Source of the DNA: Pseudobdellovibrionaceae bacterium
Lineage (GTDB): Bacteria; Bdellovibrionota; Bdellovibrionia; Bdellovibrionales; JAMPXM01
Reading direction: 5' to 3'
Length of the DNA: 37,444 nt
NCBI GenBank assembly: GCA_947462815.1
Contig: CANHQR010000035.1
Coordinates: forward strand, 1-37,444
Shown: positions 1,020 to 26,234 of the stretch, piece after piece
Position numbering within the stretch: the stretch's first letter is position 1
How the letters are laid out: every line of letters begins with the position of its first letter
The notes under the pieces: model-generated
Told to the model about the DNA's origin: nothing
Database searches by the model: none
Seen by the model: the letters and a program-made list of their open reading frames with translations, nothing else
Made by a program: the position numbers and the translations under genes

Positions 1020-1670
1020 TCAGTACTCACACTTCATGTTGGAGATGTCGGAAGGTGTCGGTGATCGGCGCAAATAGGCATTGGGAAGACTTTTGGCCAT
1101 CACGCTTCCACCACTGTCCGAATGCGCAAGCCCCAGTACATGCCCTAGCTCATGAAGAACCAAGCTCTGAAGGTCGACTTTGCCAGCCTCGGGCGTGCTG
1201 CCCGTGAAGTATTCGAAATCGCGACCATTGATACGCAAGTCGGCCTCAAAGATCTTCGAACCCGCCCAAAACACGGTGGTGCGCGCTTGCTCGTTGCTCC
1301 GATCCAACTCCCAATTGTTCATGAAATAGATGACGTTCGAACCGTCCTGGCCAGGGGAAGTGCGATTCGACCAGCCGCCGAGCCGCAAGACCTCACGTCC
1401 CAGGGATTGATTCCAATCACGGATCGCCGCCTGAATGGGACCCTGAAAATGGGAAGGTACCGAGCTATCTAAATAGAGAGTCACGGGGACGTCGATCTTC
1501 CACGAGACTCTCTGCTGTTCGGCACTCATGACGAAGTTGCAGGGTTCTTGCGGCGTAAGTTGCGGCGCACAGGCTTGCAAAGCCATCGCGACTACGAGCG
1601 TACCCATCATCGCCAACCAGGGCTTTCTCGAAAACCCTCGTACGAGTTTGCGCCACTTTAATCCCAACAC
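1020..1670 (-). CDS. Small matrixin-like zinc metalloprotease, predicted lipoprotein
   Basis: A 216-residue secreted metzincin. The GTG start at 1670 is chosen because GAGGAG lies 9 nt upstream. A basic N-terminus and a hydrophobic segment (about 18-33) end in L-Q-A-C34, a lipobox-like site, so the protein is probably lipid-anchored in the envelope. The zinc site is H173-E-L-G-H177-V-L-G-L-A-H183 with E174 as the catalytic base. The Met-turn is at S189-V-M191, only eight residues after the third histidine, as in compact matrixins. The segment before it (residues about 58-160) fits a matrixin-like N-terminal subdomain. Two further cysteines (C44, C214) could form a disulfide. No propeptide cysteine switch is visible. 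The substrate is unknown. A second, much larger metzincin lies at 3847-7494. Confidence 0.88.
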   Translation of the reverse strand: MLGLKWRKLVRGFSRKPWLAMMGTLVVAMALQACAPQLTPQEPCNFVMSAEQQRVSWKIDVPVTLYLDSSVPSHFQGPIQAAIRDWNQSLGREVLRLGGWSNRTSPGQDGSNVIYFMNNWELDRSNEQARTTVFWAGSKIFEADLRINGRDFEYFTGSTPEAGKVDLQSLVLHELGHVLGLAHSDSGGSVMAKSLPNAYLRRSPTPSDISNMKCEY

Positions 1671-3581: not shown

Positions 3582-3846
3582 AAACACTCTGCATTCTGCG
3601 CAATATCTGCCCCAAGTCGCAGTCATCCGGCGGGCGGGGGGGGGGGCGCAAAATTGTCTCAGCTCAAGCCGCAAACCGCGCAATTTTGAACAGTGACTTC
3701 GGACATTTGCCCCCGGTTTTCCAAAAATTTCAATTATTCTCGATGTCCAACTTCTAGACACGCCGCGCTAGCAAGAGGCCCGGCAATTGAACCCTGGACC
3801 CATAAGCCCGAGGGGCGCTCATGCCTTTTGGGGTCCGGGAGGACTG
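3582..3846. promoter_or_regulatory. Divergent regulatory region between the response regulator and the lipoprotein operon
   Basis: These 265 bases must hold promoters for the minus-strand regulator and the plus-strand operon. They contain a G11 run (3636-3646), an A/T-rich patch (about 3719-3739, with TTCCAAAAATTTCAATTATT) and an inverted pair GGACAT (3701-3706) / ATGTCC (3743-3748) flanking that patch. I cannot assign convincing -35/-10 boxes. The operon start at 3847 has GGGAGG 6 nt upstream. A regulator-binding role for the inverted pair is only a guess. Confidence 0.5.
3636..3646. repeat. Homopolymeric run of 11 G
   Basis: Eleven consecutive G (C on the minus strand) lie 55 bp upstream of the response-regulator start and 200 bp upstream of the operon start. 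Runs of this length are prone to slipped-strand length change in replication and to sequencing error. Position in a promoter region is the classic arrangement for transcriptional phase variation, but nothing here proves that use. Confidence 0.95.
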
Positions 3847-6800
3847 ATGCCGACGAACACTTCTCTTCGACGCTGGAATTCACGTCTGCAGATCATGCGA
3901 ACCGGCCTGGCGGCCGGATTAGTGGCCGCGGCGGCTGTCGTGGCAGGTCTAACGCAAAGTGGATGTACGATTCGCACTCCGTCGACGGAGACCCCAGTCC
4001 CCAACGACACGGGCGTCGAAAAATCCTTCTTTGTGAATGAGGTCACGGCGGCCAATGGTCAAAAGGCACAGGCGCCGAAGACCTTTCTCTGCGGCTGGGC
4101 GCCGATCACCGAATCGGGCGCGATCGCATCCTCCATGCTCACGCACGCCGTGCACATGGCCGGTCATTGCAACATGGAGTTTGAGGTCACCGAGCAGTAC
4201 TTGATTGGTCGACTGGTCAACCCCTCCTTCCCTCAGGATCGCACCCGCTGGAAGCAGGCGCTGCTGATTCCGATTCGTCAGCATTATTATTACGAGCGCT
4301 CACGCGACAGTTATGGCCGCGAAACCAACGCTTTCGTTGAGAACTCGCAGCGCTCTCACTGGTCGGCACGTCCCCAAATGCAATTGGATCTGAGTGGCGT
4401 ACGTATCCAGGATTGGGATCTTGCGATGTTCTATAACTCACGCGACGCGGTGATCACTTCGGTCACGGATATCGAGTGGGATCGCGAGAACAACTTCTTG
4501 GGCTTCACGGCGGTCGCACAGAACCCACATTGGGGCTCGACCGTTCAAGCACGCTTGCGATTCAATTTCCGCGCGTTCCAACATAACCCTCGCTTTGAGA
4601 AGACGCCTTGGACTCCAGCGAATGCGCGGCATCTGAATGCTCTGCATGTCATCGGTGAAAAAGTGGAAGGCCTGACCCAGGTTTGGTCGGCCGCGAAGTG
4701 GGATCTTTCGAAGACGCATGACGTTTATACTTATGGCTTTCCCGAAGATCTGTTGCCCATGGCGGAAGAGGTCGTGGCCTCATGGAATGAAGCCTTGGCC
4801 AAGATCGGCAAGCCCAAGGCATTTCGTCTCAATCGCGAACGCGTTCGCTATCCATTTGATTTGCGTAAACCCATGATGGTGTGGGTCGACGATCCGCAGA
4901 TCTCCGCGCACTCACCCCTCGGCGTCGGCATGGCTCAAGCTGATGTTCGCAATGGTGAAATTCTTTGGGGCCAAATCACCATGTACGGCGGCATGCTCGA
5001 GCGCTACATCAAATCGCATTTGACGCCGTTGGCGGGTGGACACTCGGGACCCACGTCGCGGTCTGCAGGTCTTCGCGCGAGCTCACGCCCCTCGATCTTC
5101 CCAACTTACTTTAATCCCACGCGCGCCTTCGAAGCTCCTGCGGGCACAGGACCGGTCGCGATGAATGGTCAGCTGCAAGTGGCTCAAGAGAGTCTGAATA
5201 CCTTGACGGCTCGACTCGCTGAGCGCGTCCAAGCGACGGGTGCTCAAGAGCAAGAGCGCCAGCGCCAAGAGCAAGCCCGACTTCGAGCCCAAGACATTCG
5301 CACGCGTTTGGTCGAATCGCTGACTGAAACAACTCAGGAAATTCAGGCTCGATTGCAACGGGATGATCGACGTACAGATCTCATGAATCTCTTTGCATTT
5401 CCCGATCGAAGCACAGAAGAGGCCCGACGCGCGGCCTTTGGTCCCGATGCAAGCTCCATCAGCGCGCGCGAGATGCTCCGGCGCTTGAACGCTCACGGTC
5501 ACGAACATGCTCAGGGCGCCTCGGGGCGCGTGGTCCACGACTTGGATCGACGACTGATGGATGTCGGTCCGCAAATTCTTGCGGCGATCGAAACCTCGCA
5601 AGTCGACTATGAGACCGCGATGAAGCGCATCACTCGCGAACTCATCATGCACGAATTCGGTCATATGATTGGACTCGGCCATCAGTTCAAAGAAAACATT
5701 CTTCCTGCCGAGGGCACGGTGCCTGAGAAATACCGCGCTCCGCTTGTGGCCGCAGCTCAGAAGAATTGGACCAATTCCACTTCGGTGATGGGTTACAAAC
5801 ATCCCTTCACAGAAATTGCGGAAGACGGCGGACACGAGCCGGGACCGCAAGACTTACTGGTCCTTCGCTACCTCTATAACGGTGAATATGCGACCTATAA
5901 GCGTGGCGACGAAGACTTCATCTTTCACAAACTTCCGCCGAACGGCGTGATCCCTGCACGACACCCCGAGCGTCAGGACTACGTCACGTCTTACTTCCCG
6001 CAGTGCAATGACTTCGATGCAAGCTTTGCCGCCGACCCGTATTGCAATCGTTTCGATCGCGGCTATAACGCCGAAAGCATCGTGAAGTCCTATTTCGAAG
6101 ACCTCAATGCCAACATGGTATCGAAAATCTACGCCTTCACAGACTCACGAGGCGGAGACACCGAGGGGGCCGAAGGCGCTCTCTGGTGGAGGGCGCTCAC
6201 GACTTTGGGTCGTGTTCGAATCTTCTACGACCATATGCGCTCACGGTACGACGCCCAAATTCGTGAGATCGCGGAGAGCGAATCGGATTTGTACGAGTTC
6301 TCGCGGGCCTGCGACGGTGAGAACATCGGTTCAGCAAAGCTTCGTCGAATCTTGAACGACAATCCCGGACTCGCCGAACTCTGCAAAGTGAATCGACTCG
6401 CCGTCAAAGAGATGATGAACCTTCTCGTGATGCCGGGGCCGGATCGTTCGCGAATGAATTGGGATGACGCTGTCGCTCCGGCAGCCATGACCGGCGGCGA
6501 TGCGGATATGGATTACTCGCGCGCCTTCGGAACGCACTCTGCGCTCTCCGTCCTGCCCCTGAAACTGAGCGCGATCAACGCTCTCACCACGCCTTACCCC
6601 TATGCGATGTTGGGTGGCTGGATGTTCCCGATTCCGCGCTACACTGGTCAGGATGGTTTGTTCTCTTACTCCAGCCTTTACCCGATCGAATTCACCGAAG
6701 CCTTGGCCGTCGCGACAGAGAAGAACCTCAAGTTTGTGGCTCCGGGCTCGCGAGAACAGGCAACCATGGGACTTCCCATCGTGTCGATGGGGTACTTTAT

Positions 6801-7494
6801 CGATTCACAGCGACTCTCGAACGACTCGACACGCTTCCCACGCGACTTCATCGAGAACATTCGCTCGCAAACTGAATTCCGCCTATCCCTGCAGGCCATC
6901 ATCCTGCACGTGAAGACCCGGGAAGACAAAACTCAGGTGACGCACTTCGAAGCCGAGCTCTATGATCCACGTACGGACAAGACGACGAGAGTCCCTGAGG
7001 CCTTCATGTTGCCAGGCGGCAAGCTCATCGTTCGCCCGCCAAGCCGAAACTTCGTCTATCCGCTCACCAAGCTCACCTTCTTGAGTGACGAAATGGCTTT
7101 CGCTTGGGGATACCGCGTCGAGTACGACGACAAACACGACGATGTTTTGGCCGCGCATAGTGTGAAAGCTTCCCTCGAGAAGCTCCACAATCAGGTCGTG
7201 GATCAGTGTTTACGCGGACCCAATAACAACGGTCTCGCGAGCCACTTCAATGCTCAACAAGACCGCGCCGTCTTCGCTGGCTTCCAGATGATGAGCGGAA
7301 TTGCAGCCGATAAGGAAAAACAGATTCGCTTCTTAGATTCCGTCAAGCGCGCATTCGATGCGTACGAGCAGCGAAATCCAGGTCAGCGAAATGCTTGTGA
7401 GCAAAGCTTACGAGGCGTTGGTCTGATCGTCAGCTCGTCAGCCGTTGTGAATGGTTACTGGTTACCCGAAGTTCTCGACTATTTGGTGAAATAA
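3847..7494 (+). CDS. Large met-zincin-type zinc metalloprotease with lipoprotein-like signal
   Basis: A 1215-residue protein. ATG 3847 is chosen over an in-frame TTG at 3787 because GGGAGG lies 6 nt upstream and a basic N-terminus plus Ala/Val-rich helix then precede QSGC, a lipobox-like site (glutamine at -3 is non-canonical). The region around residues 355-380 (PLGVGMAQADVRNGEILWG) resembles the segment before the active site in bacterial zinc-dependent metalloproteases of the DUF4953/met-zincin type. A Gln/Arg/Glu-rich predicted coiled coil (about 449-508) is inserted before the catalytic core. The zinc site is H602-E-F-G-H606-M-I-G-L-G-H612 with E603, and the Met-turn methionine is M648 in SVMGYKHP. 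About 560 residues follow with no recognised domain. It probably cleaves proteins at the cell surface or in the periplasm. It is first of four coupled genes; the next starts 13 nt after its stop. Confidence 0.85.
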   Translation: MPTNTSLRRWNSRLQIMRTGLAAGLVAAAAVVAGLTQSGCTIRTPSTETPVPNDTGVEKSFFVNEVTAANGQKAQAPKTFLCGWAPITESGAIASSMLTHAVHMAGHCNMEFEVTEQYLIGRLVNPSFPQDRTRWKQALLIPIRQHYYYERSRDSYGRETNAFVENSQRSHWSARPQMQLDLSGVRIQDWDLAMFYNSRDAVITSVTDIEWDRENNFLGFTAVAQNPHWGSTVQARLRFNFRAFQHNPRFEKTPWTPANARHLNALHVIGEKVEGLTQVWSAAKWDLSKTHDVYTYGFPEDLLPMAEEVVASWNEALAKIGKPKAFRLNRERVRYPFDLRKPMMVWVDDPQISAHSPLGVGMAQADVRNGEILWGQITMYGGMLERYIKSHLTPLAGGHSGPTSRSAGLRASSRPSIFPTYFNPTRAFEAPAGTGPVAMNGQLQVAQESLNTLTARLAERVQATGAQEQERQRQEQARLRAQDIRTRLVESLTETTQEIQARLQRDDRRTDLMNLFAFPDRSTEEARRAAFGPDASSISAREMLRRLNAHGHEHAQGASGRVVHDLDRRLMDVGPQILAAIETSQVDYETAMKRITRELIMHEFGHMIGLGHQFKENILPAEGTVPEKYRAPLVAAAQKNWTNSTSVMGYKHPFTEIAEDGGHEPGPQDLLVLRYLYNGEYATYKRGDEDFIFHKLPPNGVIPARHPERQDYVTSYFPQCNDFDASFAADPYCNRFDRGYNAESIVKSYFEDLNANMVSKIYAFTDSRGGDTEGAEGALWWRALTTLGRVRIFYDHMRSRYDAQIREIAESESDLYEFSRACDGENIGSAKLRRILNDNPGLAELCKVNRLAVKEMMNLLVMPGPDRSRMNWDDAVAPAAMTGGDADMDYSRAFGTHSALSVLPLKLSAINALTTPYPYAMLGGWMFPIPRYTGQDGLFSYSSLYPIEFTEALAVATEKNLKFVAPGSREQATMGLPIVSMGYFIDSQRLSNDSTRFPRDFIENIRSQTEFRLSLQAIILHVKTREDKTQVTHFEAELYDPRTDKTTRVPEAFMLPGGKLIVRPPSRNFVYPLTKLTFLSDEMAFAWGYRVEYDDKHDDVLAAHSVKASLEKLHNQVVDQCLRGPNNNGLASHFNAQQDRAVFAGFQMMSGIAADKEKQIRFLDSVKRAFDAYEQRNPGQRNACEQSLRGVGLIVSSSAVVNGYWLPEVLDYLVK

Positions 7495-7507: not shown

Positions 7508-10500
7508 ATGAAAACGACAAAGACTTGGATCGCTCTAATAGCCTCTGCACCATTTTGGGTGGCTTGCGTAAACCGAGAGGTGACCCACACTCCCCACGCG
7601 GGGCCGATCGCCGGCGACGAGATCGTCCAAGCTCCGGTGACGGAGACCGCCGACGAGCAGAGACTTCGCGCTCTCTGGAATCAGCCCATTTTAGCTCGTC
7701 GAACAAGTGAAAGCTCTCGCCCTGCTGGGGACCTCGAGGAAAATTTGCGCCGCCTCGAGCCCTACATTTTGAACGCCGCTTACGTGGAAAATCCGCGCCT
7801 CGCGAATACGCGCGTGATGCGAGCCGCTCTTCAGGCCTTCAATGCAGATCTCTTGGCTCTGCATGCGAGCTCTCCGGAAAAGGCCGCTCCTTGGCTGGAA
7901 CGCGTGCGAGTCATGATGGAGTCGGGCTGCGATGGCGAACTTCGCGGCTGTAACAACATTGGTTTCTTCCGCGGCGACGCAGGCTCGCCTCGTTTACTCG
8001 AGCTCGCAACGGCACCTGTTGATCGCGAAATTCGATCGCTCCGCGACGCACTGAAAACGCGACCCGACACCGAGAAACAGCAGCGTCTCAACGACTTGGT
8101 GCGGGTGTACTACCGTCGATTGTCCATTGCATTTGAAATGCGAAATCGCGTCGCTGACCCGAACTTTGAGTTTTCCTACCTTGCCCACGCGCGCGAGTAC
8201 GCGACGGCGATGGCGGGAGCCGCGGAAGGTTCACGAGAGCGCCAGCTCCTAAGTCGCCACACCGAAATCTTTGAGATCATCTTGAACCGCTTTAATCCGG
8301 ATCTCTCTAACCCGGAAATGCGCACGCGTTTTTCAGAGTTCATTGATGCTTTCTCTCCGTGGACCTATTCACGTCGAGCCGCCAATCCATTTGGTCAGGC
8401 GTCGACTCGACTTTTGAGCCTCGCAGCGACCGGATTTTTGTATGACGGAGCTCGGGTCAACGCTTCATTGACTCGCGCCATTCAAGAGTCCCAACGCCCG
8501 TCAGACCCGCCCGCGGATCAGGGTCTAGACACGTCCTTTGCCTCACTCGTTGCCTACATAAAAGCCCAGTCGCCCGGTATTTGGCGAAACCTCAAACTCC
8601 GCGATGACTTCGAGCGCGACGAATACTTTTTCATGGTGGATCGTCTGTTCGGTGATCACTTGACGGTGGACGATGTCACAGGAATCTGGCGTGGATCGCG
8701 ACGCGACTCGCGACGCGTGCTGGAGACGGCCGAGGCCTATATCAAGGTTCAGATCGCCGCACAAATTCTTCGGACAAACAAGTACATGAGTGAGATCTAC
8801 TCGAAGAAGGAATGGTCGTCGGCGACCTTGTTCACCAAGGCCATCGAACTGTCCTATCCCATCTCCACGCAGTGGAATCAGTTGCTCTCACGTGTGGATC
8901 GTGTCCAACTCTTCCTCGATCGAAACCTCAAGCGCGCCGATGGCGCTGTCGGTGAAGATGTCGATCGTTATCTCGAAGTGGAACGTGGGTTGTCCTCACT
9001 GCGCCGAAACATCAAGTATCTTTCGGTCTACCCGAACATGATGCTCATGGCTTTCTTTTTGGCCGAAGTGAATTTTAAAGTCACGGTCTACACATTCTTT
9101 GGAGCCTTTGAGATCGACTCAGCTGTTATCATCAGCTGGTTCTTCAACGGGCAAATGCGACCTCTGTTCAATTTTGGAAATGACGGCGAATCCCTGAAGC
9201 GCCTTGAAACTCTGTACGCCTTCCTCTTCGCCCTCGACACCGAGACCTTTAAGGCCTTTCAGGTGAATGAAGCTCAGCGACTCGACACGCAGACTTTCTT
9301 CCGCGTCGTACTCGGTAAGTTCTTGGACGCGAATCGTCTGTCGATGCAGCAGTCGTTGGATCGCGTGCGGTCCAGAATGCAGCAGTCGACAACTTTAGGG
9401 ACATTCATGCAGGCCTGTCAGTCTCAGGATGCCAACCCGATCGCCTTGGAGTTTCGTCAAATCAACAGTGTCGTCTATATGGGTGGCAGCGGCTTCGGCG
9501 AAGACGCCTACAAGTTCCATGAAAACTTGATCGTCAACAACGTGCGTGAGATTCGGGAAGAATTGGGACCTAAGCTGCAGTTTGTGGAGATGATGATCGA
9601 CACGCTCAGGACTCAGCAGCTGCGTTCCGGCGAGTCGCAAGCGAACGTTGAGGCCGAAATCACGCGGATTCGCTCGTCCCTGCAAGACATCGAGCGCCTC
9701 CAGGCTGAGTTTTTAACTGAAACTCTTCGTCACCACACGCGTTTGAGTCCTTGTATTGATCGAGCCAATCGCATCGAACATGAGCGCCAGGCGCAATTAA
9801 TCTTCGACGAGAAGAAGCACCTGGAAGACGTTTGGACCGCAATGAATGAAGCTCGTGCGCTCAATGGCGGGACCCAAGCCCAGCGTCTCACCGCGGCCAA
9901 TGAAGCGCTGAAGCAGACACTCGCGCTACAAACCTTCAATACGGGCAATGATTATCGACCACTCTCGTCGATCAGCACAGATGTCTACGTGTACAGCGAG
10001 CTCGATGTGCTGCTGCGACTCCGCGCCAACATCGAAAGTCGCCGTGGCGAATGGAAAACACGTATCATTATGCCGTCGGATCTGACCGATACAGAGGCTT
10101 GGCGCAATCGTCGCCAAAGCGTCATTCCCTTCCGCGCGAGCAAAGAGGAGTTTGTTCGCGAGGGGCTCAAGAGCTGGAATGGCACGTACTCAGGATACAT
10201 TCGCTGGTTGGCATCAACTTCGGATGTGGACAACTTGAAGTATCGTTTGGCCCTCAACGCGGAACTCTACAAGTTGGGCCAAATGAAGCTCTTCAAGATC
10301 AATGATCCAAGCTGTGTCGACAAGCCGATGACCGATTGCCCATTGATGGACTTCCGTCTGACGGCTGAGACTCTCGTCCGCAGCTCCCTGGATGTCGCTC
10401 GCAATCTTTCGATGCTCGATGAGCAAGGTCGGCCGACTCGCGACACTCAGGCTCTCGCATTGACCGGCGCTAAGGCACGCTATGGACGAGACAAACTGAA

Positions 10501-10981
10501 GGACTTCTTGCTCGATAAGAACTTAGATCCTCAGTCGCTTATGGAATGGACCTACTCCCAGCTCACCAACGATGAGGTGGCTATGGAACAAGGTCGACAG
10601 TTTGCGACCCTCGCTCGCTCGGCCGGTCACTTCTTGTTCGCCCCTGGCCGTGAAATCGAAGATCAAGTTGCCGATCGGATTTCCGCAATCGTACGTACAC
10701 ATTTCGGTCAAGTCGCCGAGTTTGAGTCCGCTCTGCAAAAGCAGGAATTGGAAGACGCTCGGCAGAATCGCGTCGTTCGCTTCGCCTATGAGATTCGTGA
10801 CGATGGTCGTGGGTTTCTCGAAGTCGCTTCGCCCACTTCACGTCGGGAAGGTGTTGAGGCGCCGACCTATCTCGCGCGGCAGAAGATCGAAGACTTTGCA
10901 ACTCGGCGCTCGCTCTACAACCGAGAAACGAATGGCTTGCTCTTAGACCGCACGGCGCCAGCCGCTCGTCGAGGACAGTGA
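7508..10981 (+). CDS. Giant predicted lipoprotein A, unknown family (paralogue of 12344-15865)
   Basis: An 1157-residue protein with GGAGG 6 nt before the ATG. A short signal peptide ends at F-W-V-A-C20, so lipidation is likely though tryptophan at -3 is unusual. No known domain is recognised. The protein looks largely alpha-helical, with many Arg/Glu/Leu stretches and helical blocks around 690-780. It shares a colinear layout with the protein at 12344-15865. Both carry C-D-x-E-L-R-G-C (C141/C148 here). Both have a hydrophobic block starting near residue 499 (RRNIKYLSVYPNMMLMAFFL here) followed by an EID-x8-SWF-x-G pattern, and a later C-I-D-R. The paired cysteines suggest a disulfide, hence an envelope location. 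It sits in an operon between the met-zincin and a barrel-like protein. A structural or substrate-binding partner of that assembly is plausible; function unknown. Confidence 0.8.
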   Translation: MKTTKTWIALIASAPFWVACVNREVTHTPHAGPIAGDEIVQAPVTETADEQRLRALWNQPILARRTSESSRPAGDLEENLRRLEPYILNAAYVENPRLANTRVMRAALQAFNADLLALHASSPEKAAPWLERVRVMMESGCDGELRGCNNIGFFRGDAGSPRLLELATAPVDREIRSLRDALKTRPDTEKQQRLNDLVRVYYRRLSIAFEMRNRVADPNFEFSYLAHAREYATAMAGAAEGSRERQLLSRHTEIFEIILNRFNPDLSNPEMRTRFSEFIDAFSPWTYSRRAANPFGQASTRLLSLAATGFLYDGARVNASLTRAIQESQRPSDPPADQGLDTSFASLVAYIKAQSPGIWRNLKLRDDFERDEYFFMVDRLFGDHLTVDDVTGIWRGSRRDSRRVLETAEAYIKVQIAAQILRTNKYMSEIYSKKEWSSATLFTKAIELSYPISTQWNQLLSRVDRVQLFLDRNLKRADGAVGEDVDRYLEVERGLSSLRRNIKYLSVYPNMMLMAFFLAEVNFKVTVYTFFGAFEIDSAVIISWFFNGQMRPLFNFGNDGESLKRLETLYAFLFALDTETFKAFQVNEAQRLDTQTFFRVVLGKFLDANRLSMQQSLDRVRSRMQQSTTLGTFMQACQSQDANPIALEFRQINSVVYMGGSGFGEDAYKFHENLIVNNVREIREELGPKLQFVEMMIDTLRTQQLRSGESQANVEAEITRIRSSLQDIERLQAEFLTETLRHHTRLSPCIDRANRIEHERQAQLIFDEKKHLEDVWTAMNEARALNGGTQAQRLTAANEALKQTLALQTFNTGNDYRPLSSISTDVYVYSELDVLLRLRANIESRRGEWKTRIIMPSDLTDTEAWRNRRQSVIPFRASKEEFVREGLKSWNGTYSGYIRWLASTSDVDNLKYRLALNAELYKLGQMKLFKINDPSCVDKPMTDCPLMDFRLTAETLVRSSLDVARNLSMLDEQGRPTRDTQALALTGAKARYGRDKLKDFLLDKNLDPQSLMEWTYSQLTNDEVAMEQGRQFATLARSAGHFLFAPGREIEDQVADRISAIVRTHFGQVAEFESALQKQELEDARQNRVVRFAYEIRDDGRGFLEVASPTSRREGVEAPTYLARQKIEDFATRRSLYNRETNGLLLDRTAPAARRGQ

Positions 10982-10982
10982 T

Positions 10983-12344
10983 ATGAAACAGCCTGCCTTC
11001 AATGACAAACTGGGCGACAAATCGAAGCGTCAAAAAGGGCGCAAGATCGCTGTCGCGGCTTGGGGTCTATGCGCCTCATTGGTGATTGTTGGATTTCAAC
11101 CAAATATCGCTTTGGCAACAATCTCTCAGGCATCGAATGCCCAGGGCAGCAAAAAATCAGCAACAGCATCTCGCTCGACGAAACTTGCAAAGAGCCAATC
11201 CGTTCAGAAGTCGAACACGTCGCGGGCCTCCGCAATGAAGATCGCCCAGCCCAAGGTGAAGCGCACGTTCATCAGCTTTGATGAAGCCCCAACTCAAAGT
11301 ACAAGATCCGCTGTACAGGGGCCCGCACGACCACGCAAGCAGGCCAAGGCCCTGAAAGCACCCCAGCTCATGTTTGCTTCAGGCGCCGTCGCACCGACGA
11401 GTCTGTACCTGCCGGACACAGATGAAATGACCGTGACCCGCCAGCGCGAAGATCAACTCCGCGGCAAATCCGAAAGGACCAAGCGACGAATCCTCGTCGA
11501 TGAAGATCATGATGTTGGCAGTTCGCGGCTATCGACAGCGACTGAGGCGTCGGACGAGTCCAAGCAGCGCTTCAAGCTTCGCCCCTCGTTGAATTACTCG
11601 GTTCGTTCTGATCTGGCCGATGAACGCGACCCGAGAATCAGCACGCACCGCTTGGGCGCCGCGATGTCGGCGACGATTTTCAATCGCGCGATCACACCTG
11701 GCTTTGACGAAGAGATGGCCGATGAACTCCTCACCCTCTCCGCCTCGATTTCAGGACAGGCGCGCACCATTGGCCAAGAGCTCGATGGCCAGCAAGGTGG
11801 CTTCGATCTCGCCGATCTCGATATCGCCGCCAGCCGAAGCTTTGATCTCGGCGACTGGGCCACGGCCTCGCACAGCTTAGACGCCGCCTTAGGTACGAAT
11901 ATTCCGACCTCGGTGGACTCACAGTATGAGGGCGTCAAGGCAGTTCCCTACGCCAGCCTCGGTGTCGCCTCGAGCTTTCGAGGAGGGCGAGTCCAATTGC
12001 TGAATTCCGTCACCGGTGACTATGTGGTCAACACCTACACCTTTAGCCCCTCCTCCCGCCAAATCAATCCTGACGCGTCTGTGGGTTATACCCTCGGTGG
12101 ATCGGTTCTCATTGCCTCAGGATTTCGATTTGGCGTCTCGGCTACGGCACGACTTACGCATCATCTCGACGAGAGCGTATCGAACGGCTTTTCGAACCAA
12201 CAGACGCTGTCCTGGTCGAACAAAACTTGGACAGTGGCTTTGCGACATTCGAATGGATCACGACCTGAAGATCGAGAGAGCAACTTGTGGTTCTTTGATC
12301 AGGTTCGACGAATGGTCGCGCTCAGCGTAACCGCGAGGTTTTAA
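10983..12344 (+). CDS. Secreted protein with probable outer-membrane beta-barrel C-terminal domain
   Basis: A 453-residue protein with GAGGA 7 nt before the ATG and only 1 nt after the stop of lipoprotein A, so translation is probably coupled. The N-terminus has a long basic region, a hydrophobic stretch (about 22-40) and a signal-peptidase-I-like end at I-A-L-A45. Residues 46-190 form a Ser/Lys/Arg/Gln-rich, probably disordered linker. From about 197 to the end, short alternating hydrophobic strands with Gly/Ser/Asn-rich turns lead to a terminal phenylalanine (ALSVTARF), as in outer-membrane barrels recognised by the BAM machinery. The barrel call rests on strand pattern and the terminal Phe, not on a recognised family. 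Its place between two homologous lipoproteins suggests a membrane anchor or pore for them. Confidence 0.72.
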   Translation: MKQPAFNDKLGDKSKRQKGRKIAVAAWGLCASLVIVGFQPNIALATISQASNAQGSKKSATASRSTKLAKSQSVQKSNTSRASAMKIAQPKVKRTFISFDEAPTQSTRSAVQGPARPRKQAKALKAPQLMFASGAVAPTSLYLPDTDEMTVTRQREDQLRGKSERTKRRILVDEDHDVGSSRLSTATEASDESKQRFKLRPSLNYSVRSDLADERDPRISTHRLGAAMSATIFNRAITPGFDEEMADELLTLSASISGQARTIGQELDGQQGGFDLADLDIAASRSFDLGDWATASHSLDAALGTNIPTSVDSQYEGVKAVPYASLGVASSFRGGRVQLLNSVTGDYVVNTYTFSPSSRQINPDASVGYTLGGSVLIASGFRFGVSATARLTHHLDESVSNGFSNQQTLSWSNKTWTVALRHSNGSRPEDRESNLWFFDQVRRMVALSVTARF

Positions 12345-15300
12345 TGCAGCGATCGTGGCGGCAAATGACATCAGCTTCGAGCCGGGCCATGCTCAGCCTC
12401 GTGAGCACTTTGCTGCTCGCGCAGGCCGCTTGTACGCGCGACGCAAGCCTTCGCCGCCCGCATTCGCCCGATCGTCCAACCGAAGCCACAGCGCCGACTC
12501 CGGTTTCCCCGCAGGCACGCGCCGCTGTCGTTCCCGCAAGCCGCGATCAGCAAAGTCGAGCTCGAGAGTTTGAACAATTCTTCGAGCCCTCGCGCTTTGA
12601 ACAAAAAGCTGCGCGCCCCGATCAAGCCTTTCGCGACGAAGTTTCGCAGTGGCTCGTTCGCGGTGTTGAGTTACTCAGCACCACAGAGCGAAGAAGTGTT
12701 TTGCGCGCTTTCACGCGCGTCGCACTGCTGGGCTGCGACGCGGAATTGCGGGGATGCCGTGTGGCAAACCGCTTTCGCCGAACACCGGGGGCTGTCGAGC
12801 TCCTTTTGGCGGCAGCTGACGACGTGAGCTCGGAGAGCGAAAGCTCGGCCGATCAAATCTCAAATCGGCACCGTTTGCTGAGCTTGGCATTTGCCGCAGC
12901 CGGAGAGGCACATGATTCACGAATTGGCGAGGCCTGGATCCGCACCGCAAAGGCCTATGAGGATACTTTACGAACTGAGCTGACACGAACTGAGCGCGAA
13001 CGCCGATCAGAGATGGCCAATTCGATTCGTCGCCGATTGACCGAGAGCCAAGAAATTGTCGATGTGGTCCTCTCGCGTTTGAATCTCACCTCAGCGGACG
13101 CACAAACATTGCTGGATCGACTTGTTCAGGATTATGGCGCTTGGAATTTCGATGCACCCCGCGACCCGCGCTTGAGCGCTCGGCGCGAAGCACTTCTTCG
13201 CGCCGTTGCTCCAAGGCTCTTGACCCAGGAGTTTATTCGTCAAGATCTGCAACGCGTTCGCGATCGTCGCGAGTCGGTCGGGCCGCAATTGGCCGAACTT
13301 TTCCGGCTTCGGCCCTGGGCTGAGGAAACCTTGGGCTTGCAGCGCGAGCTACCTCAAGACTTCAATTTGTGGGTTTTCGAAAGCTTGTGGATGGATCGAC
13401 TCACAGCCGCAGAGGCCGTGCAGCTTCGCGAGGTCCACCTACAAAACCTCTCTCGGTCTTCAGGCGCGTCCGGCGTGTCGGCATTTAACCTTGATGCATA
13501 TCGAGAGTCAGAGCGCCACGCATTCCTCAACTACTTGCGCACACGCTTGCTCCTGACATCTCGCCAAGCCAACGCGATCATCGCCGAATTTTTCAGCGGT
13601 GATCATGGCCGAGTGAATTCCGCCAATGCCGTTCAAGAGGGCGTCAACGAATCTCATAAAGGTCAACAGATTTGGGCGGATGCCAAAAGACGCTTTGAGA
13701 GCTTGCGTGCCTATTCCGAGCGAACTCTGCGAGCTGGGTCTTCAGCTCCTGCGGCCACAAACCCTGGCGTGGGTGCCGACGCGCTCTCCCCGTTACTCTC
13801 TCCCCTACAAAAGGTCGACCTCTTCTTTGCGAGCCTCGATCGAAATATCAAGCTCACTTCGACATATCCGAGCATGTTGATCATGGCCTACCACTTGGCA
13901 CGCCTCAACTTTGTCATGCGCATTATGACTTGGGGTGGAGTGGTTGAGATCGACGGCGGACAAATCCTCAGTTGGTTCGTTCGTGGCGAAGTGAATCCCT
14001 GGTTTGCCTACGGCTCTGACTTTCAAAGCATCCCAAGCCCTGAGATCCCGATGGTGTTTCATTACGCTTTGGAATTGGGTACGCTGGAGCAGTCGAAGAT
14101 CGAGCTCCCCCACTTCTTTCAACTGCTCGCGGCGCAGACCATTGGTCCGCATCGCGTTTCGGCCGAGAAAGTTGAGCTCGCCTACCGCACGCGGTTTGAA
14201 GAGTCTGCGGATATGCATGAGTTTCGCTCTCGTTGCCGTGAGATTCAGTCTCCCCACGCCAAGACTTCGGTCCAATCACAGCTGCGAAGTCTTCGTTGGT
14301 TTACGAGCTTCGGCTTTCCGCAGTCGCTTCATCATAATCGATCCGTCAATTTCGAGCCACGCGCCTCCGAGCTCTTGATGGAAGCAGGCGGCTTCTACAG
14401 CACCGAACGCGACATCACGAAGGTTCGACTCGATGAGAATATCGAGACCCTGCGCCTCGATTTAGGAACGATTCTCGAAAAGGTGCAGATCTTTGAACGA
14501 ATGGCTCAGATGCACCTGCGTCGCAACCAACGTGACGAGATCGCTCGCGGCATCCGCGCTCATCTCGAACCCATCGAGCGTCTGCAAAAAACAGCTTATC
14601 GACAAATCGCGAAACTCAATGAAGAGATTGGCGGCTGCATCGACCGTATGGTTCGCCACGAAATGACGAGCCAAAGCTTTACGATAAACGCCTGGATTGA
14701 GCATCTCAAGCAGGTGCATGCTGCCATGACGATTCTCCGTCAGCGGCAAGTGACAGAGCGACAAACTGACTTGAATCTCCTAGGGCGCCTCCAACAAACT
14801 GGCGAATCCCTCCAAGGTTACGCGGAACACGAGCAAGCCCTTGGATACGATCATGAGTCCTACCGAAGCACAGGCTTACAGGTCGTGCTGCGTATGAAGC
14901 TGTTCTTGGAGCACGGCGCGAGCATCGGCGGCCAAGTTCGCCAGGGCCCTCGCCAAGCTCGAAGCATCTTGTTGCCTCAGCGCTTGCGAGACCTGCCGAC
15001 AGAATTGCGAGAGAAGGAAGTCCGAATTCCCTACACAAACGATGTCAACGAGTTTGTAGACTTCGGATTGCGGGCCACGATCGGCGGCGTAGCACAAGGC
15101 GTGGTCCACTGGGCCGATCAAAACTCGATTTCGCTCTCCTACAATCACCGCATGCGCGCTCTGATCGCCTTGCAGAAGGCCTTGGCTTCGACCCAAGTGA
15201 ACAAGTCCGAAACGGGCCCAGGAGCCCAGGAGTTTTGGCGTGCGGACGTTCAAGCCGTTCAACGAGCCGCCCTCGAAATGCAGCGCTGGTTTGAACCCGA

Positions 15301-15865
15301 TGAAGTTTGGACACGTGTGTTGCGCGCGACAGGCCGAGGCGTACGCCCCGATATCTCGTCCTTCCTTGATGAAATCGCATGGCGGAAAGGCGAAGACACC
15401 CCGCGAGGGCTTCTGGATCATGCCTTTGAGACCATGAGTTCAGATAAGCTGGGCGAAACGGATGGCGAGGCGGCTATGTCTCGACAGCGTGGACGTTCCT
15501 CACCAAAAACTGAGTTCATGTCATACCGACTGGCTCGCCAGAGCCGAGGTTTACCCGCTATTGAGCTTCCGGCTGAGGCTGAGGCCGAGATCAAAAATTT
15601 CTACGAAGACCGCCTGAACACCCAGCTCAAACTGACCGCTGGTTTCTTACGCGAAGCCCAACGCGTCGACGCCGACCGACGCCAACGCCCTGCCCAATAC
15701 CCCGCATGGCGCATGAATGTGCTGCGCCCGAGCCGCGACGCTTTGAGCATTCCAACTCTGAGCCCTGCCGTGATCACGGAGTTCCAATCGCAAATGGGTG
15801 AGCTCACTCGCGAAACGGGCTATCAGCTCCCTGAAGAACTGACCTCGGCCCTCCGGGGTCGCTAA
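12344..15865 (+). CDS. Giant predicted lipoprotein B, unknown family (paralogue of 7508-10981)
   Basis: An 1173-residue protein whose ATG overlaps the TAA of the barrel gene by one base (TAATG). GAGG lies 5 nt upstream, inside that gene. A signal peptide ends at L-A-Q-A-A-C30, lipoprotein-like. It is colinear with protein A: C131-D-A-E-L-R-G-C138, a hydrophobic block beginning at residue 499 (DRNIKLTSTYPSMLIMAYHL) followed by EIDGGQILSWFVRG, and a later GGCIDR. Overall identity looks low outside these blocks, so the duplication is old. A Pro/Ala/Ser-rich low-complexity stretch (about 467-485) is specific to this copy. No catalytic motif is seen. It is the last gene of the operon; a weak hairpin and a tRNA gene follow. 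Function unknown, probably in one complex with its neighbours. Confidence 0.8.
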   Translation: MQRSWRQMTSASSRAMLSLVSTLLLAQAACTRDASLRRPHSPDRPTEATAPTPVSPQARAAVVPASRDQQSRAREFEQFFEPSRFEQKAARPDQAFRDEVSQWLVRGVELLSTTERRSVLRAFTRVALLGCDAELRGCRVANRFRRTPGAVELLLAAADDVSSESESSADQISNRHRLLSLAFAAAGEAHDSRIGEAWIRTAKAYEDTLRTELTRTERERRSEMANSIRRRLTESQEIVDVVLSRLNLTSADAQTLLDRLVQDYGAWNFDAPRDPRLSARREALLRAVAPRLLTQEFIRQDLQRVRDRRESVGPQLAELFRLRPWAEETLGLQRELPQDFNLWVFESLWMDRLTAAEAVQLREVHLQNLSRSSGASGVSAFNLDAYRESERHAFLNYLRTRLLLTSRQANAIIAEFFSGDHGRVNSANAVQEGVNESHKGQQIWADAKRRFESLRAYSERTLRAGSSAPAATNPGVGADALSPLLSPLQKVDLFFASLDRNIKLTSTYPSMLIMAYHLARLNFVMRIMTWGGVVEIDGGQILSWFVRGEVNPWFAYGSDFQSIPSPEIPMVFHYALELGTLEQSKIELPHFFQLLAAQTIGPHRVSAEKVELAYRTRFEESADMHEFRSRCREIQSPHAKTSVQSQLRSLRWFTSFGFPQSLHHNRSVNFEPRASELLMEAGGFYSTERDITKVRLDENIETLRLDLGTILEKVQIFERMAQMHLRRNQRDEIARGIRAHLEPIERLQKTAYRQIAKLNEEIGGCIDRMVRHEMTSQSFTINAWIEHLKQVHAAMTILRQRQVTERQTDLNLLGRLQQTGESLQGYAEHEQALGYDHESYRSTGLQVVLRMKLFLEHGASIGGQVRQGPRQARSILLPQRLRDLPTELREKEVRIPYTNDVNEFVDFGLRATIGGVAQGVVHWADQNSISLSYNHRMRALIALQKALASTQVNKSETGPGAQEFWRADVQAVQRAALEMQRWFEPDEVWTRVLRATGRGVRPDISSFLDEIAWRKGEDTPRGLLDHAFETMSSDKLGETDGEAAMSRQRGRSSPKTEFMSYRLARQSRGLPAIELPAEAEAEIKNFYEDRLNTQLKLTAGFLREAQRVDADRRQRPAQYPAWRMNVLRPSRDALSIPTLSPAVITEFQSQMGELTRETGYQLPEELTSALRGR

Positions 15866-16427: not shown

Positions 16428-18068
16428 ATGTCTGACCTTAACGATTCCGCTCAATTCACTGGCCCCGGAGAGCCGAGGCGCCTGGCGAACAGATTGAGCG
16501 GCGCCTTAGCCGTCGCGAGCGGAATTTTTCTGAGCCGTATCGTCGGCCTGGTTCGACAAAAGTTCCTGGCACACTATTTCGGCGCCAGCGATTACGCCGA
16601 TGTCTTTCAAGCGGCGCTCAAAATTCCAAATTTTCTGCAGACTCTTCTTGGCGACGGTGTCATGTCGGGAAGTTTGATTCCTGTGTACGCTCGGCTTCGC
16701 GCCGAGGGCCGCCACGAAGAAGCTAACCAAGTCGCGTCGGCAACCGCCCAGTGGATGGCCCTCATCAACACCGTGATCGTGGGCGTGAGCATACTCCTCG
16801 CGCCTTGGGTTATTCCGTTGTTGCTGCCAGGATTTTCTGCTGAGAAGCAAGCTCTCACCGTGCAGCTGGCGCAGATGTTGTTTCCCGGAATCGGCGCCCT
16901 TGCCCTGTCTGCTTGGTGCCTGGGTGTTCTCAATTCCCACGGACGATTCTTTCTTTCTTACGCAGCTCCCGTCATTTGGAATGTGAGCATCATCACCGCT
17001 CTCGTTTATTACGGGACAGATTGGTTTGGCCAGTCACTCCCCCCTGAAGAATTGGTTGTGCAAACCACCTGGGGCGTTGTGATTGGCTCCTTCCTCCAAC
17101 TCCTCGTGCAGGTCCCCGCCGTTCTCGGACATATCAATTGGAAGTGGGGACTCGCCTCTGGGTCATCCCATGTGAGGCAGGTGGCGAAAAGTTTTTTTCC
17201 TATCGTTTCCGGTCGAGGTGTTGTCCAACTGAGTGCTTATGCCGATAACCTCATCGCCTCGCTTCTCCCGAGTGGCGCACTCGCCACTTTGGCGTACGCG
17301 CAGACACTTTACATGCTGCCCATCTCATTGTTCGGTATGTCGATCTCCGCTTCGGAGCTTCCTGCGATGTCGAGCGCACTCGGCACACGCGAGCAAATCT
17401 CTCTGCAGTTACGCGATCGGCTACAAGCCAGCAGCGCTCGCGTGGCCTTCTTCATTATCCCGACCTGTGGAGTGTTCTTGTTCTTTGGAGCCGATGTCTT
17501 GAGCGCATTGTTTGGCGGCGGACGATTCGACGCACAAGCGATACGGGCTTCGCAGTGGGCTTTAATCGGATACAGTCTGGCCTTGTTTCCGACGACACAG
17601 TCTCGACTCCTGGTCTCCGCCTTTTATGCTCTGAAAGATGCGCGCACGCCATTTCGCGCATCAGCCGCCCGCGTGCTCGCCGCGTCTCTGATCGGCGCAG
17701 CCCTCGCACTCTACTTCGAAGAGTCGTCTCAAGGCGCCCTCCCCGCTTCTGTTCTCGGCCTTACGTTGGGGACAGGGCTCACCAGCTGGCTGGAGTGGCT
17801 TTGGCTGCGAAAGAAATTGCAACTTGAAATTCCTGATCTCAGTGTAGAGTCGCGACTTATCGTGAAGCTTCTGTTGATCTCGCTTCTCGCTTTGCTCATA
17901 GGTTTTGTCCTCGGACACTATCTGACGGATTTGCCGAGACTCGCCCGAAGTGGAGCCGTTCTGTGCACGATCGGTACGATCTACATCGTCTGCACCTACC
18001 TGGCGCAGGTCTCCACCGCACGTGAGATCGTTCGGCGAGTGCGCCGCCGCTCAACTCAACGCCCCTAA
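16428..18068 (+). CDS. murJ: Lipid II flippase MurJ (MviN)
   Basis: MurJ moves the peptidoglycan precursor lipid II across the inner membrane. The 546-residue length and the many hydrophobic helices (about 14) fit the MOP-superfamily MurJ group. The N-terminal signature is clear: SGIFLSRIVGLVRQKFLAHYFG, then ADVFQAALKIPNFLQTLLGDGVMSGSLIPVY, then a cytoplasmic-loop-like RAEGRHEEA. A later stretch (VVQLSAYADNLIASLLPSGALATLAYAQTLYMLPISLFGMSI) is also typical. The ATG at 16428 is the family-like start; its ribosome-binding site is weak. It stands alone, downstream of the tRNA and convergent with the serine protease gene, with only 54 bp between the two stops. Confidence 0.96.
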   Translation: MSDLNDSAQFTGPGEPRRLANRLSGALAVASGIFLSRIVGLVRQKFLAHYFGASDYADVFQAALKIPNFLQTLLGDGVMSGSLIPVYARLRAEGRHEEANQVASATAQWMALINTVIVGVSILLAPWVIPLLLPGFSAEKQALTVQLAQMLFPGIGALALSAWCLGVLNSHGRFFLSYAAPVIWNVSIITALVYYGTDWFGQSLPPEELVVQTTWGVVIGSFLQLLVQVPAVLGHINWKWGLASGSSHVRQVAKSFFPIVSGRGVVQLSAYADNLIASLLPSGALATLAYAQTLYMLPISLFGMSISASELPAMSSALGTREQISLQLRDRLQASSARVAFFIIPTCGVFLFFGADVLSALFGGGRFDAQAIRASQWALIGYSLALFPTTQSRLLVSAFYALKDARTPFRASAARVLAASLIGAALALYFEESSQGALPASVLGLTLGTGLTSWLEWLWLRKKLQLEIPDLSVESRLIVKLLLISLLALLIGFVLGHYLTDLPRLARSGAVLCTIGTIYIVCTYLAQVSTAREIVRRVRRRSTQRP

Positions 18069-18122: not shown

Positions 18123-19097
18123 TCAGCGCGAGCGGCAGGCCGCCGACTTACAGGGAAGATTCTGAATAGCGCGAATGAAAGCCGAAGAACTGATCGCGAT
18201 GTTGGCATGGCGAACGTTCCAAGCTGGGATCACGCGATCTTCGGGACGGAATTCACGCGACGCCATGCCCACGACAAACCACTCTTCGATATTCTGCGTA
18301 TTCTTGATAGGCATCAACAGCGGCCCACCAGACGCTCCCACTTCGAGAGCGCAGTCAATCGGCAAAAGGCTCGGCACCGGCTTGGGAGGCTGCATGCTGG
18401 CATCGCCATTGAGCGCTCTGGCCGAGCAGTCTCGCTCTACGGAAATTCCGGGCTGATCATAGCGTGAAGCAGGAAATCCCAACATCGCCAAACGTTGTAC
18501 GCCTGCGCGGTTTTGGAGAACCTCTTGAGCTGTTTTCGTCGCCACATCGAGAAAGCCAAACTCCGCCCCGACACAAGTCTCAAGCTCAAGAATCGCCCAG
18601 TCTTGCCCGAGCCCATCCCAAGTCACATCATAGGAGCCCCAAGCCACCGGCGTGGCCTTCACTCGACGCGTGAAACGAAGGGGATCGTTCTCGGTGAGTC
18701 CAATTTGAAATTCAGAAACATGCTGGCGCGGGTGGGTCGGCGGCGTCACTCGCTGCGAATTGCTCTCCGCGGGAAAGGCCACATGATAAGCCGTCGCGAT
18801 ATGACATTCGGTGACCAAGAAGGCCGTGCCCCATCCTCCATCATCCGGCACACGAGTGAGGATCCCGACGGAACGCAAGATCGGCCGAGCGGGATTTTCC
18901 TGCACTCTCGCGTCGCGAACAAAAACATTACCCCACGCGGTCGAGTCCCAGCCCCCCGAGACGAGAACGAGAAAAACCCGCAAGGCGTAGGAACGGAGGT
19001 TGGCTTCCTTGCCAAGCAAGCTGCCGAGGAACCTGCCTAGGAGTTTGTTACGGAGTTCGCCACACAGGCGATCGCGAAGGCATATGTTCGACTTCAT
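18123..19097 (-). CDS. Secreted trypsin-like (S1 fold) serine protease
   Basis: A 324-residue protein with GAGGAG 6 nt before the ATG at 19097, which fixes the start. The catalytic triad is easy to see: H105 in ATAYHVAF, D166 in GQDWAIL and S257 in GASGGPL. The fold and length fit the chymotrypsin-like/V8-like peptidases. The N-terminal 36 residues are basic and precede a short hydrophobic stretch (RVFLVLVSGGW, about 40-50), so the signal peptide has an unusually long n-region. Eight cysteines (5, 12, 98, 175, 224, 249, 316, 321) suggest disulfides; C224 and C249 flank the segment before the active serine. Specificity cannot be read. It is the last gene of the minus-strand run, 261 bp from the upstream gene. 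Confidence 0.88.
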   Translation of the reverse strand: MKSNICLRDRLCGELRNKLLGRFLGSLLGKEANLRSYALRVFLVLVSGGWDSTAWGNVFVRDARVQENPARPILRSVGILTRVPDDGGWGTAFLVTECHIATAYHVAFPAESNSQRVTPPTHPRQHVSEFQIGLTENDPLRFTRRVKATPVAWGSYDVTWDGLGQDWAILELETCVGAEFGFLDVATKTAQEVLQNRAGVQRLAMLGFPASRYDQPGISVERDCSARALNGDASMQPPKPVPSLLPIDCALEVGASGGPLLMPIKNTQNIEEWFVVGMASREFRPEDRVIPAWNVRHANIAISSSAFIRAIQNLPCKSAACRSR

Positions 19098-21586: not shown

Positions 21587-22996
21587 TCACTCCTCGTCCG
21601 GGAGTTCGTCGTCGTCGACTTTTCCTAGATTGTACTTCTCGACGCGATAGCGCATTGAGCGGAACGTGATTCCCAAGAGCTTCGCCGCGCGCTTCTTGAC
21701 ACCGTTGGCTTGATGAATCGCTTTCACCAACAGCTCTTTTTCGAGTTGGTCGATCACCTTCTGGAGATCGATCCCCTCATCGGTGATCTCGATTCCATCG
21801 CTTGAGACCATCTTGCGACCACTTGGCGTGTTCACAAATTGTGGTAAGGACTCAGGCAACACGGTTGCACCTGACTCGAGGGCCACGGTGCGCTCGATGA
21901 TATTTTCGAGCTCTCGGACGTTGCCCGGGAAATCGTACTTCTTGAGTAGATCCATCGCTTCTTTGGAGATACTCTGGATGGCCTTACCGAACCGATCGTT
22001 ATACTTCTGCAAGAAGTGATTGGCGAGTAGCGGAATATCATCGCGACGTTCTCGCAGAGCCGGAGTTTTGATGTTGATGACGTTCAAACGATAAAACAAA
22101 TCTTGGCGGAAAGTCCCGTGCTTGGTCATGTCCTCGAGGTCGCGGTTCGTGGCCGCGATGATTCGAACATCGACTTTAATATCTTCTGTCGCACCCACGC
22201 GACGGATCACACGCTCTTGAATCGCGCGCAGAATTCGCACTTGCGACTGCAGAGGCAATTCGCCAATCTCGTCAAGAAAGAGAGTTCCACCATCAGCGAT
22301 CTCAAACAGACCCGGCTTATCCGCGACCGCCCCCGTAAACGAACCCTTCTTGTGACCAAATAATTCCGATTCCACCAGGTTCTCAGGGATCGCTCCGCAG
22401 TTGACAGAAACAAAGGGCTTATCCTTCAGCGGCGAGTTGAAGTGAATGGCTTTCGCCACCATCTCCTTACCCGTACCAGATTCACCTGTGACCAACACGT
22501 TCGTTGGAGCATCGGAAACTTTGCGAATCAATTCGAAGATCTTATGCATCGCCTCGCTGTTGCCGACGAGGTTCTGGAAGGAGTACTCCTTTTGGAGCTC
22601 CTTGCGCATAACGCGGTTTTCGACTTCCAAGTTTTTGGATCGAAGCGCGTTGGCAATGTTGATGCGAACTTCATCGATGCGGAAAGGCTTGGTGATGTAG
22701 TCGTACGCGCCCATCTTCATGGCTTCCACGGCGCTCTCCGCCGTACCGAAGGCCGTGATCATCATGAACAGGACGTCCGGATAGTTTTCTCGCGAGTGCT
22801 TGAGCAGCTCTAAACCCGTGACGTTCGGCATCTGCAAGTCAGAGATCACCAAATCAAAAGTTTTCTTCTTGAGTGTATCGATCGCCTTTTGGCCATCCTC
22901 TACGCAAGTGACTTCATAGCCCTCTTTGCGAAGCATGATGTCCAGAAATTCGCGGATTGATTCTTCGTCATCGACGACCAAGATGCGTGGCTTCAT
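21587..22996 (-). CDS. pilR: PilR-type sigma-54-dependent response regulator
   Basis: A 469-residue NtrC-family activator that, when phosphorylated by its partner kinase, drives RNA polymerase with sigma-54; in type IV pilus systems the target is usually the pilin gene. The receiver domain is at 1-120 with D9/D10, phospho-site D53 and K103. The AAA+ domain spans about 140-375, with Walker A GESGTGKE (171-178) and Walker B GGTLFLDEIGEL (236-247). The C-terminal Fis-type helix-turn-helix lies at about 420-462. The sigma-54 contact loop reads G218-S-F-T-G-A instead of GAFTGA. The tail is acidic (DDDELPDEE). The PilR assignment rests on its place after pilC and a PilS-like kinase. No pilin gene is in the window. 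Confidence 0.92.
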   Translation of the reverse strand: MKPRILVVDDEESIREFLDIMLRKEGYEVTCVEDGQKAIDTLKKKTFDLVISDLQMPNVTGLELLKHSRENYPDVLFMMITAFGTAESAVEAMKMGAYDYITKPFRIDEVRINIANALRSKNLEVENRVMRKELQKEYSFQNLVGNSEAMHKIFELIRKVSDAPTNVLVTGESGTGKEMVAKAIHFNSPLKDKPFVSVNCGAIPENLVESELFGHKKGSFTGAVADKPGLFEIADGGTLFLDEIGELPLQSQVRILRAIQERVIRRVGATEDIKVDVRIIAATNRDLEDMTKHGTFRQDLFYRLNVINIKTPALRERRDDIPLLANHFLQKYNDRFGKAIQSISKEAMDLLKKYDFPGNVRELENIIERTVALESGATVLPESLPQFVNTPSGRKMVSSDGIEITDEGIDLQKVIDQLEKELLVKAIHQANGVKKRAAKLLGITFRSMRYRVEKYNLGKVDDDELPDEE

Positions 22997-26190: not shown

Positions 26191-26234
26191 CCCTCACCCC
26201 ATATGGCGCTCGCACCGCACCGTTTGGCCAGCCC

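What the first reader, a model, noticed from the sequence alone, without database searches (positions are those of the whole stretch)
7508..15865. Two giant lipoproteins in one operon are ancient colinear paralogues
Proteins A and B share C-D-x-E-L-R-G-C near residues 131-148. Each also has a hydrophobic Y-P-x-M block whose first residue is number 499 in both, then an EID-x8-SWF-x-G pattern and a later C-I-D-R motif, although overall similarity looks low. They flank the barrel gene, as if one gene was duplicated around it. A heterodimer built from old paralogues is a testable idea.
Basis: partly seen in the sequence, partly recalled or inferred. Interest (0 to 1): 0.65.

Follow-up and report, generated by a model that had tools for sequence, protein, structure and literature searches.

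The report
Ancient paired lipoproteins beside a protease
Two very large lipid-anchored proteins, encoded close together in an uncultured relative of the predatory bacterium Bdellovibrio, descend from one ancient gene duplication and have been inherited together next to a zinc protease, which suggests an unstudied two-part envelope machine.

Summary
The finding is right. Proteins A (7508-10981) and B (12344-15865) align end to end: BLASTP E=1e-38; profile against profile, 100% probability, E=4.6e-99, 1052 columns. Five cysteines (lipobox plus four more) fall in the same columns, and predicted secondary structure agrees at 87.5% of aligned positions against a control mean of 52%. The genome's relatives are Bdellovibrionota MAGs. 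The pair belongs to a cassette of fixed order, metzincin lipoprotein - A - (barrel) - B: B follows A in 29 of 29 cassettes with intact downstream context, and the metzincin lies directly upstream in 32 of 32. Trees separate A from B apart from one long-branched row, and holding A as one clade raised the likelihood. A, B and metzincin trees agree far beyond chance. The barrel between A and B is optional (17 of 29). No Pfam, NCBIfam or PADLOC family and no convincing PDB match was found for A or B. The heterodimer is plausible but not shown; my best reading is a paralogous helical scaffold for an outer-membrane metzincin.

The parts
3787..7494 (+). Metzincin-like lipoprotein (MZ), 1235 aa as read from the first TTG; the true start is probably internal. 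HExxHxxGxxH at residues 622-632, lipobox Cys at residue 60
   Evidence: Weak PF16313 Met-zincin hit, below cut-off, but 10 of 13 family members match that model, best E 1.4e-11; catalytic residues and C60 invariant in 13 of 13; directly upstream of A in 32 of 32 cassettes with A's start in view
7508..10981 (+). Protein A, 1157-aa mainly helical lipoprotein, lipobox Cys20
   Evidence: conserved C20, C141, C148, C637, C749
7928..7951 (+). A motif CDGELRGC, residues 141-148 (conserved Cys pair)
9008..9208 (+). A core block, residues 501-567 (NIK..YPNM, beta hairpin, EID..SWF..G), same residue numbers as in B
9416..9418 (+). A Cys637
   Evidence: 21 of 22 family members Cys, 1 gap
9752..9763 (+). 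A CIDR motif, Cys749
   Evidence: 20 of 22 Cys, 2 gaps
10983..12344 (+). Predicted outer-membrane beta-barrel gene (453 aa) between A and B
   Evidence: Ends ...SVTARF; homologous to barrels near metzincins in other genomes of the order, hhalign 97.9%, E 6.3e-13; present between A and B in 17 of 29 cassettes
12344..15865 (+). Protein B, 1173-aa mainly helical lipoprotein, lipobox Cys30, paralogue of A
12734..12757 (+). B motif CDAELRGC, residues 131-138
13844..14044 (+). B core block, residues 501-567
14234..14236 (+). B Cys631 (equivalent of A Cys637)
   Evidence: 19 of 19 Cys; aligned to A637
14636..14647 (+). B CIDR motif, Cys765 (equivalent of A Cys749)
   Evidence: 19 of 19 Cys; aligned to A749

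Best explanation
A and B are the two products of one ancient tandem duplication inside an envelope cassette of Bdellovibrionota (metzincin lipoprotein - A - optional barrel - B). Shown here: end-to-end homology, equivalent cysteines and lipobox, fixed order, pairing without exception and co-inheritance with the metzincin. Inferred: all three large proteins are lipid-anchored at the outer membrane; A and B pair as a pseudo-symmetric helical heteromer that holds, presents or restrains the metzincin; the small barrel, where present, is an accessory outer-membrane partner. My probabilities: paralogy 0.98; obligate co-inherited pair 0.9; direct A-B contact 0.5; scaffold or regulator of the metzincin 0.4.
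For: Homology: with negative controls. Order: 29 of 29 intact cassettes have B downstream of A on the same strand, 32 of 32 have the metzincin directly upstream, with many start/stop overlaps of 1-4 bases suggesting coupled translation. Trees: A and B are two blocks except for one row; the tree with A held together was 1.27 and 14.03 log units better than the free search (p-AU 0.53, 0.80). A and B trees share 10 of 18 splits, permutation mean 0.29, maximum 3 in 1000; A-MZ and B-MZ also share 10 of 18. Lipobox Cys in 45 of 46 A/B rows, the 46th cut by a contig end; Asp at +2 in only 3 of 22 A and 3 of 23 B, which by the E. coli sorting rule (recalled) favours the outer membrane.
Against: No contact data and no complex model. 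12 of 29 cassettes have no barrel between A and B, so the barrel cannot be essential to an A-B pair. Co-inheritance within one operon needs no physical contact. PDB fold matches are only generic helical-repeat resemblances (TM about 0.1) and say nothing about function. Metzincin relatives without A and B are common: 117 of 140 genomes of the order have an MZ match, many only over part of the profile, against 18 of 140 with A (three signal-region matches dropped), so A/B are not needed by this protease family in general.
Confidence: 0.5

Rival explanations
1. A and B are true paralogues but act separately, for example as two independent substrate- or prey-binding lipoproteins that share an operon with the protease.
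For: B changes faster than A (A more identical in 198 of 210 cassette pairs; mean identity 19.5% against 15.7%), as if their roles had separated; the order may reflect co-regulation only.
Against: B present beside A in 29 of 29 intact cassettes, across several families and beyond the order; tree congruence between A and B.
Confidence: 0.3
2. A and B are parts of a secretion or surface-display route for the metzincin: periplasmic or surface chaperones working with the barrel as an exit port.
For: A barrel near a metzincin recurs in genomes without A/B, and the barrels are homologous; 17 of 29 A/B cassettes hold the barrel between A and B.
Against: 12 of 29 cassettes have no barrel between A and B, and in 11 of them none was detected in the locus; the barrel is short in relatives (273-347 aa) and matches no known export family.
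Confidence: 0.15
3. The similarity is convergent or compositional (two helical lipoproteins with similar short motifs).
For: Identity is low (23%) and both models are mainly helical.
Against: End-to-end hhalign E=4.6e-99 with near-zero probability for controls, five equivalent cysteines and a coincident beta hairpin.
Confidence: 0.01

Closest known systems
Pfam PF16313 (DUF4953, Met-zincin)
   Same: The upstream lipoprotein carries the metzincin zinc motif; 10 of 13 family members match the model at E<=0.01, best 1.4e-11
   Different: The window copy is below the curated cut-off (19.8 against 24.2 bits); the protein is much longer than the matched part, has a lipobox, and is tied to A and B
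Metzincin and barrel neighbours in other genomes of the order (ten loci)
   Same: Homologous barrel (hhalign 97.9%, E 6.3e-13) near a distant metzincin lipoprotein of about 1100-1700 aa
   Different: No A or B family protein found in these loci; the 436-461-aa lipoprotein that follows the metzincin in three of them matches A/B over the signal peptide and linker only
Eukaryotic helical-repeat scaffolds (FANCD2, exportins, separase)
   Same: Large helical superstructures rank first in PDB searches
   Different: TM about 0.1, Z at most 8.6 over partial ranges: generic helical arrangement, no kinship shown

Membership tests
Paralogue pair (A and B homologous over their length) | End-to-end alignment with significant score | tested here: met
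   controls
Paralogue pair (A and B homologous over their length) | Shared motifs in equivalent positions | tested here: met
   Five Cys and the 501-567 block align
Paralogue pair (A and B homologous over their length) | Same fold by superposition of models | tested here: inconclusive
   Only predicted secondary structure could be compared: 87.5% agreement, control mean 52.0%, maximum 60.6% over 1113 shifts; coordinates not available
Paralogue pair (A and B homologous over their length) | A and B each on one side of a branch (one old duplication) | tested here: inconclusive
   Two blocks apart from one long-branched row; the tree with A held together is better than the free one but not significantly (p-AU 0.53, 0.80). 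Root not inferred
Lipoproteins (A, B) | Signal peptide and lipobox Cys | tested here: met
   Cys in the lipobox column in 45 of 46 rows; the window boxes (WVAC, QAAC) are atypical at -3; lipidation itself not tested
PF16313 Met-zincin (upstream gene) | Score above curated cut-off | tested here: not met
   19.8 bits against 24.2 for the window copy; so it is called metzincin-like
Metzincin clan (upstream gene) | HExxHxxGxxH plus downstream Met | tested here: met
   H622, E623, H626, G629, H632 and M668 invariant in 13 of 13
Any Pfam, NCBIfam or PADLOC family (A, B) | Hit above cut-off | tested here: not met
Known PDB fold (A, B) | Convincing fold match | tested here: inconclusive
   no sequence match in the PDB
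Heterodimer | Physical A-B contact | not testable with these tools
   No complex prediction on hand

The most novel reading that the evidence does not exclude
A and B found a new fold family: an obligate paralogous lipoprotein heteromer that, with its own metzincin and often a barrel, forms a modular outer-membrane protease machine of Bdellovibrionota, kept in several ancient, mutually insulated subtypes within one cell.
Probability: 0.3. Interest if true: 0.75.

Novelty: new variant of a known kind. Interest (0 to 1): 0.5.

Why it matters
It turns two anonymous 130-kDa ORFs into a defined, conserved, testable set: a metzincin with two paralogous giant lipoproteins, found in 21 of 368 Bdellovibrionota genomes searched (after dropping three signal-region-only matches), with no family in Pfam or NCBIfam. 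Several old subtypes side by side in one genome, each with its own A, B and protease, make partner specificity directly testable, and the clade is related to bacterial predators whose envelope proteases are of practical interest.

Tried and rejected
Close-relative scan with B alone found no relative; the MZ profile then gave 26 named loci, all MAGs labelled Bdellovibrionota, Bdellovibrionales, Bdellovibrionia, Bdellovibrionaceae, Bdellovibrio sp. or Oligoflexia.

I suspected that the 436-461-aa lipoprotein after the metzincin in three Bdellovibrio-like loci was a short A/B relative (best E 0.0004); the match is only the signal peptide and low-complexity linker: rejected.

Internal duplication inside A (N half against C half): none detected, hhalign 0.1%. 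Kinship of A or B with the metzincin, or of A with the barrel: none. Defence system: no PADLOC hit.

PDB fold searches gave no family with a convincing match; that absence is not evidence of a new fold, as only whole models of more than 1100 residues were searched.

Rows dropped: three raw A-family genome hits (G100, G105, G014) match only profile positions 1-99 and were not counted. In the cassette count L041, L042/L100, L060, L053 and L055 were treated as other pieces of cassettes already listed, judged from contig length and complementary truncation; L066 (metzincin fragment only) and L081 (metzincin on its own contig) were not counted as cassettes; L021 (its B, L022, is on another contig), L039, L078 and L102 were left out of the 29 because the contig ends before B. 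Of 12 loci with a distant metzincin read (L067-L075, L082-L084), ten gave a barrel; L072 gave none and the neighbour in L075 (339 aa, E 0.03) was not used. Several loci were fetched through the metzincin, so 'metzincin always upstream' is partly by selection; loci fetched through A show the same.

The trees place G031_B (the same protein as L049_B) beside its own A; it is a long branch and the tests do not favour that placing.

Papers: searches listed nothing on this cassette. I saw search listings for all, and passages only of PMC12546842 and PMC12228718. PMC12546842 mentions Bd3137 with homology to zinc metalloproteases and proteases Bd2269 and Bd2692; I could not test kinship with the metzincin here.

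Full report
What was claimed and checked. The window lies in a 3.43-Mb genome (G000, contig 35) whose named relatives are all uncultured Bdellovibrionota. ORFs A (7508-10981, 1157 aa) and B (12344-15865, 1173 aa) are as stated, with a 453-aa barrel gene between. The motifs exist with small corrections: YPxM at 508 and EID-x5-SWF-x2-G at 535 in both proteins, CIDR at 749 and 765, CD.ELRGC at 141 and 131. The equal numbers at 501-567 arise because earlier indels cancel.

Homology. BLASTP of the two window proteins gives 144 bits, E=1e-38. Profiles of 22 A and 19 B sequences align with 100% probability, E=4.6e-99, over 1052 columns from the signal peptide to near the C-terminus. With the same program A or B against the metzincin gives 1.4% and 1.3%, A against the barrel 0.1%, and the N half of A against the C half 0.1%. 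In a joint alignment of 34 proteins, the lipobox Cys and four further Cys of A (20, 141, 148, 637, 749) pair with those of B (30, 131, 138, 631, 765); three of these columns are Cys in 34 of 34 rows and two in 33 of 34. Two disulphides are a natural inference, untested.

Structure. AlphaFold2 models: A pLDDT 83.1, pTM 0.72; B 75.7, 0.68. Both are mainly helical, with the same beta hairpin at 524-529/532-537 in the most conserved block. Over 1028 aligned residues the three-state assignments agree at 87.5%; 1113 shifted controls average 52.0% with a maximum of 60.6%. Both models come from alignments of one superfamily, so the agreement is not fully independent of the homology. Foldseek and VIA-align found only generic helical-repeat matches (best Z 8.2 for A, 8.6 for B).

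Cassette. Immediately upstream of A is a 1235-aa protein with an invariant HExxHxxGxxH and an invariant lipobox Cys in 13 of 13 family members; 10 of 13 match Pfam Met-zincin, although the window copy itself is below the cut-off. I read 33 distinct cassettes (after merging duplicate records as told under Tried and rejected). In 29 of 29 whose downstream side is intact, B follows A on the same strand; the other four are cut by contig ends. In 32 of 32 with A's start in view, the metzincin is directly upstream. The barrel lies between A and B in 17 of 29, is not there in 12, and in one of those 12 lies upstream of the metzincin. Many neighbouring genes overlap by 1-4 bases.

Distribution. A-family matches at E<=0.001 occur in 21 of 140 genomes of the order and 24 of 368 of the phylum; three of each are matches to profile positions 1-99 only, leaving 18 and 21. 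Three genomes outside the order carry the same cassette (L095-L099). Metzincin matches occur in 117 of 140 genomes of the order, many over part of the profile only. In ten loci from ten other genomes (L067-L071, L073, L074, L082-L084) a homologous barrel sits near a distant metzincin without A or B (hhalign 97.9%, E 6.3e-13). The barrel-metzincin association is thus wider than the A/B pair.

History. In trees of 34 and 46 proteins, A and B fall into two blocks with one exception, a long-branched B that joins its own A. Forcing all A together gives a better likelihood than the free quick search found (by 1.27 and 14.03; p-AU 0.53 and 0.80); this does not prove the clade but removes the objection. 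The branch between the blocks is short compared with the depth inside them, so the duplication lies near the base of the cassette's radiation; the root is not inferred. Separate trees of A, B and metzincin from 21 cassettes share 10 of 18 splits in each pairing (permutation means 0.26-0.29, maximum 3 in 1000) with distance correlations of 0.75-0.84. One genome (G028) has four cassettes, of which one groups with cassettes of G023, G015 and G034 and another with one of G270, outside the order: the subtypes are old rather than recent copies. Shared splits partly reflect species descent, but the subtypes cross genomes, so cassettes have been kept as sets. B changes faster than A in 198 of 210 cassette comparisons.

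Mechanism. Shown: the pair, its order and co-inheritance. From sequence: lipobox Cys in 45 of 46 A/B proteins, Asp at +2 in only 6 of 45, which by the E. coli sorting rule (recalled) favours the outer membrane; low-confidence linkers follow the lipobox in both models. Inferred: A and B pair as a pseudo-symmetric heteromer that scaffolds or restrains the lipid-anchored metzincin at the outer membrane, with the barrel an optional partner. Rivals are independent binding lipoproteins and an export or display route. No experiment or complex model is on hand, and nothing here shows contact or any link to predation.

Known or new. No A or B relative is in Pfam, NCBIfam, PADLOC or, by sequence, the PDB, and the paper searches listed under Tried and rejected found no description. 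A co-inherited tandem paralogue pair is a known kind of arrangement; this family and cassette are undescribed as far as these searches reach.

Noticed in passing
window 1020-1670 (-): A second, small metzincin-like protein (216 aa, Peptidase_M10, E 1e-8) about 2 kb upstream of the cassette.
   Followed up: no
window 18123-19097 (-): Trypsin-like peptidase just under the Pfam cut-off, beyond a MurJ gene (16428-18068).
   Followed up: no
window 21587-29138 (-): Row of genes with sigma-54 response regulator, PAS histidine kinase with a weak PilS-like membrane part, T2SSF and two T2SSE proteins: looks like a type IV pilus cluster.
   Followed up: no
L028, L029, L032, L036 (genome G028): Four cassettes of different old subtypes in one genome, each with its own metzincin, A and B.
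   Followed up: partly
L098, N-termini of A and B: The first residues after the lipobox Cys are nearly the same in A and B of this one cassette (CSKEVQKI.HK), hinting at local gene conversion or a shared docking stretch.
   Followed up: no
L067-L071, L073, L074, L082-L084: Homologous barrel gene near a distant metzincin lipoprotein in loci that lack A and B.
   Followed up: partly
L021 4558-8390: Metzincin read in two adjoining ORFs (692 and 586 aa) in genome G012: frameshift or assembly error.
   Followed up: no
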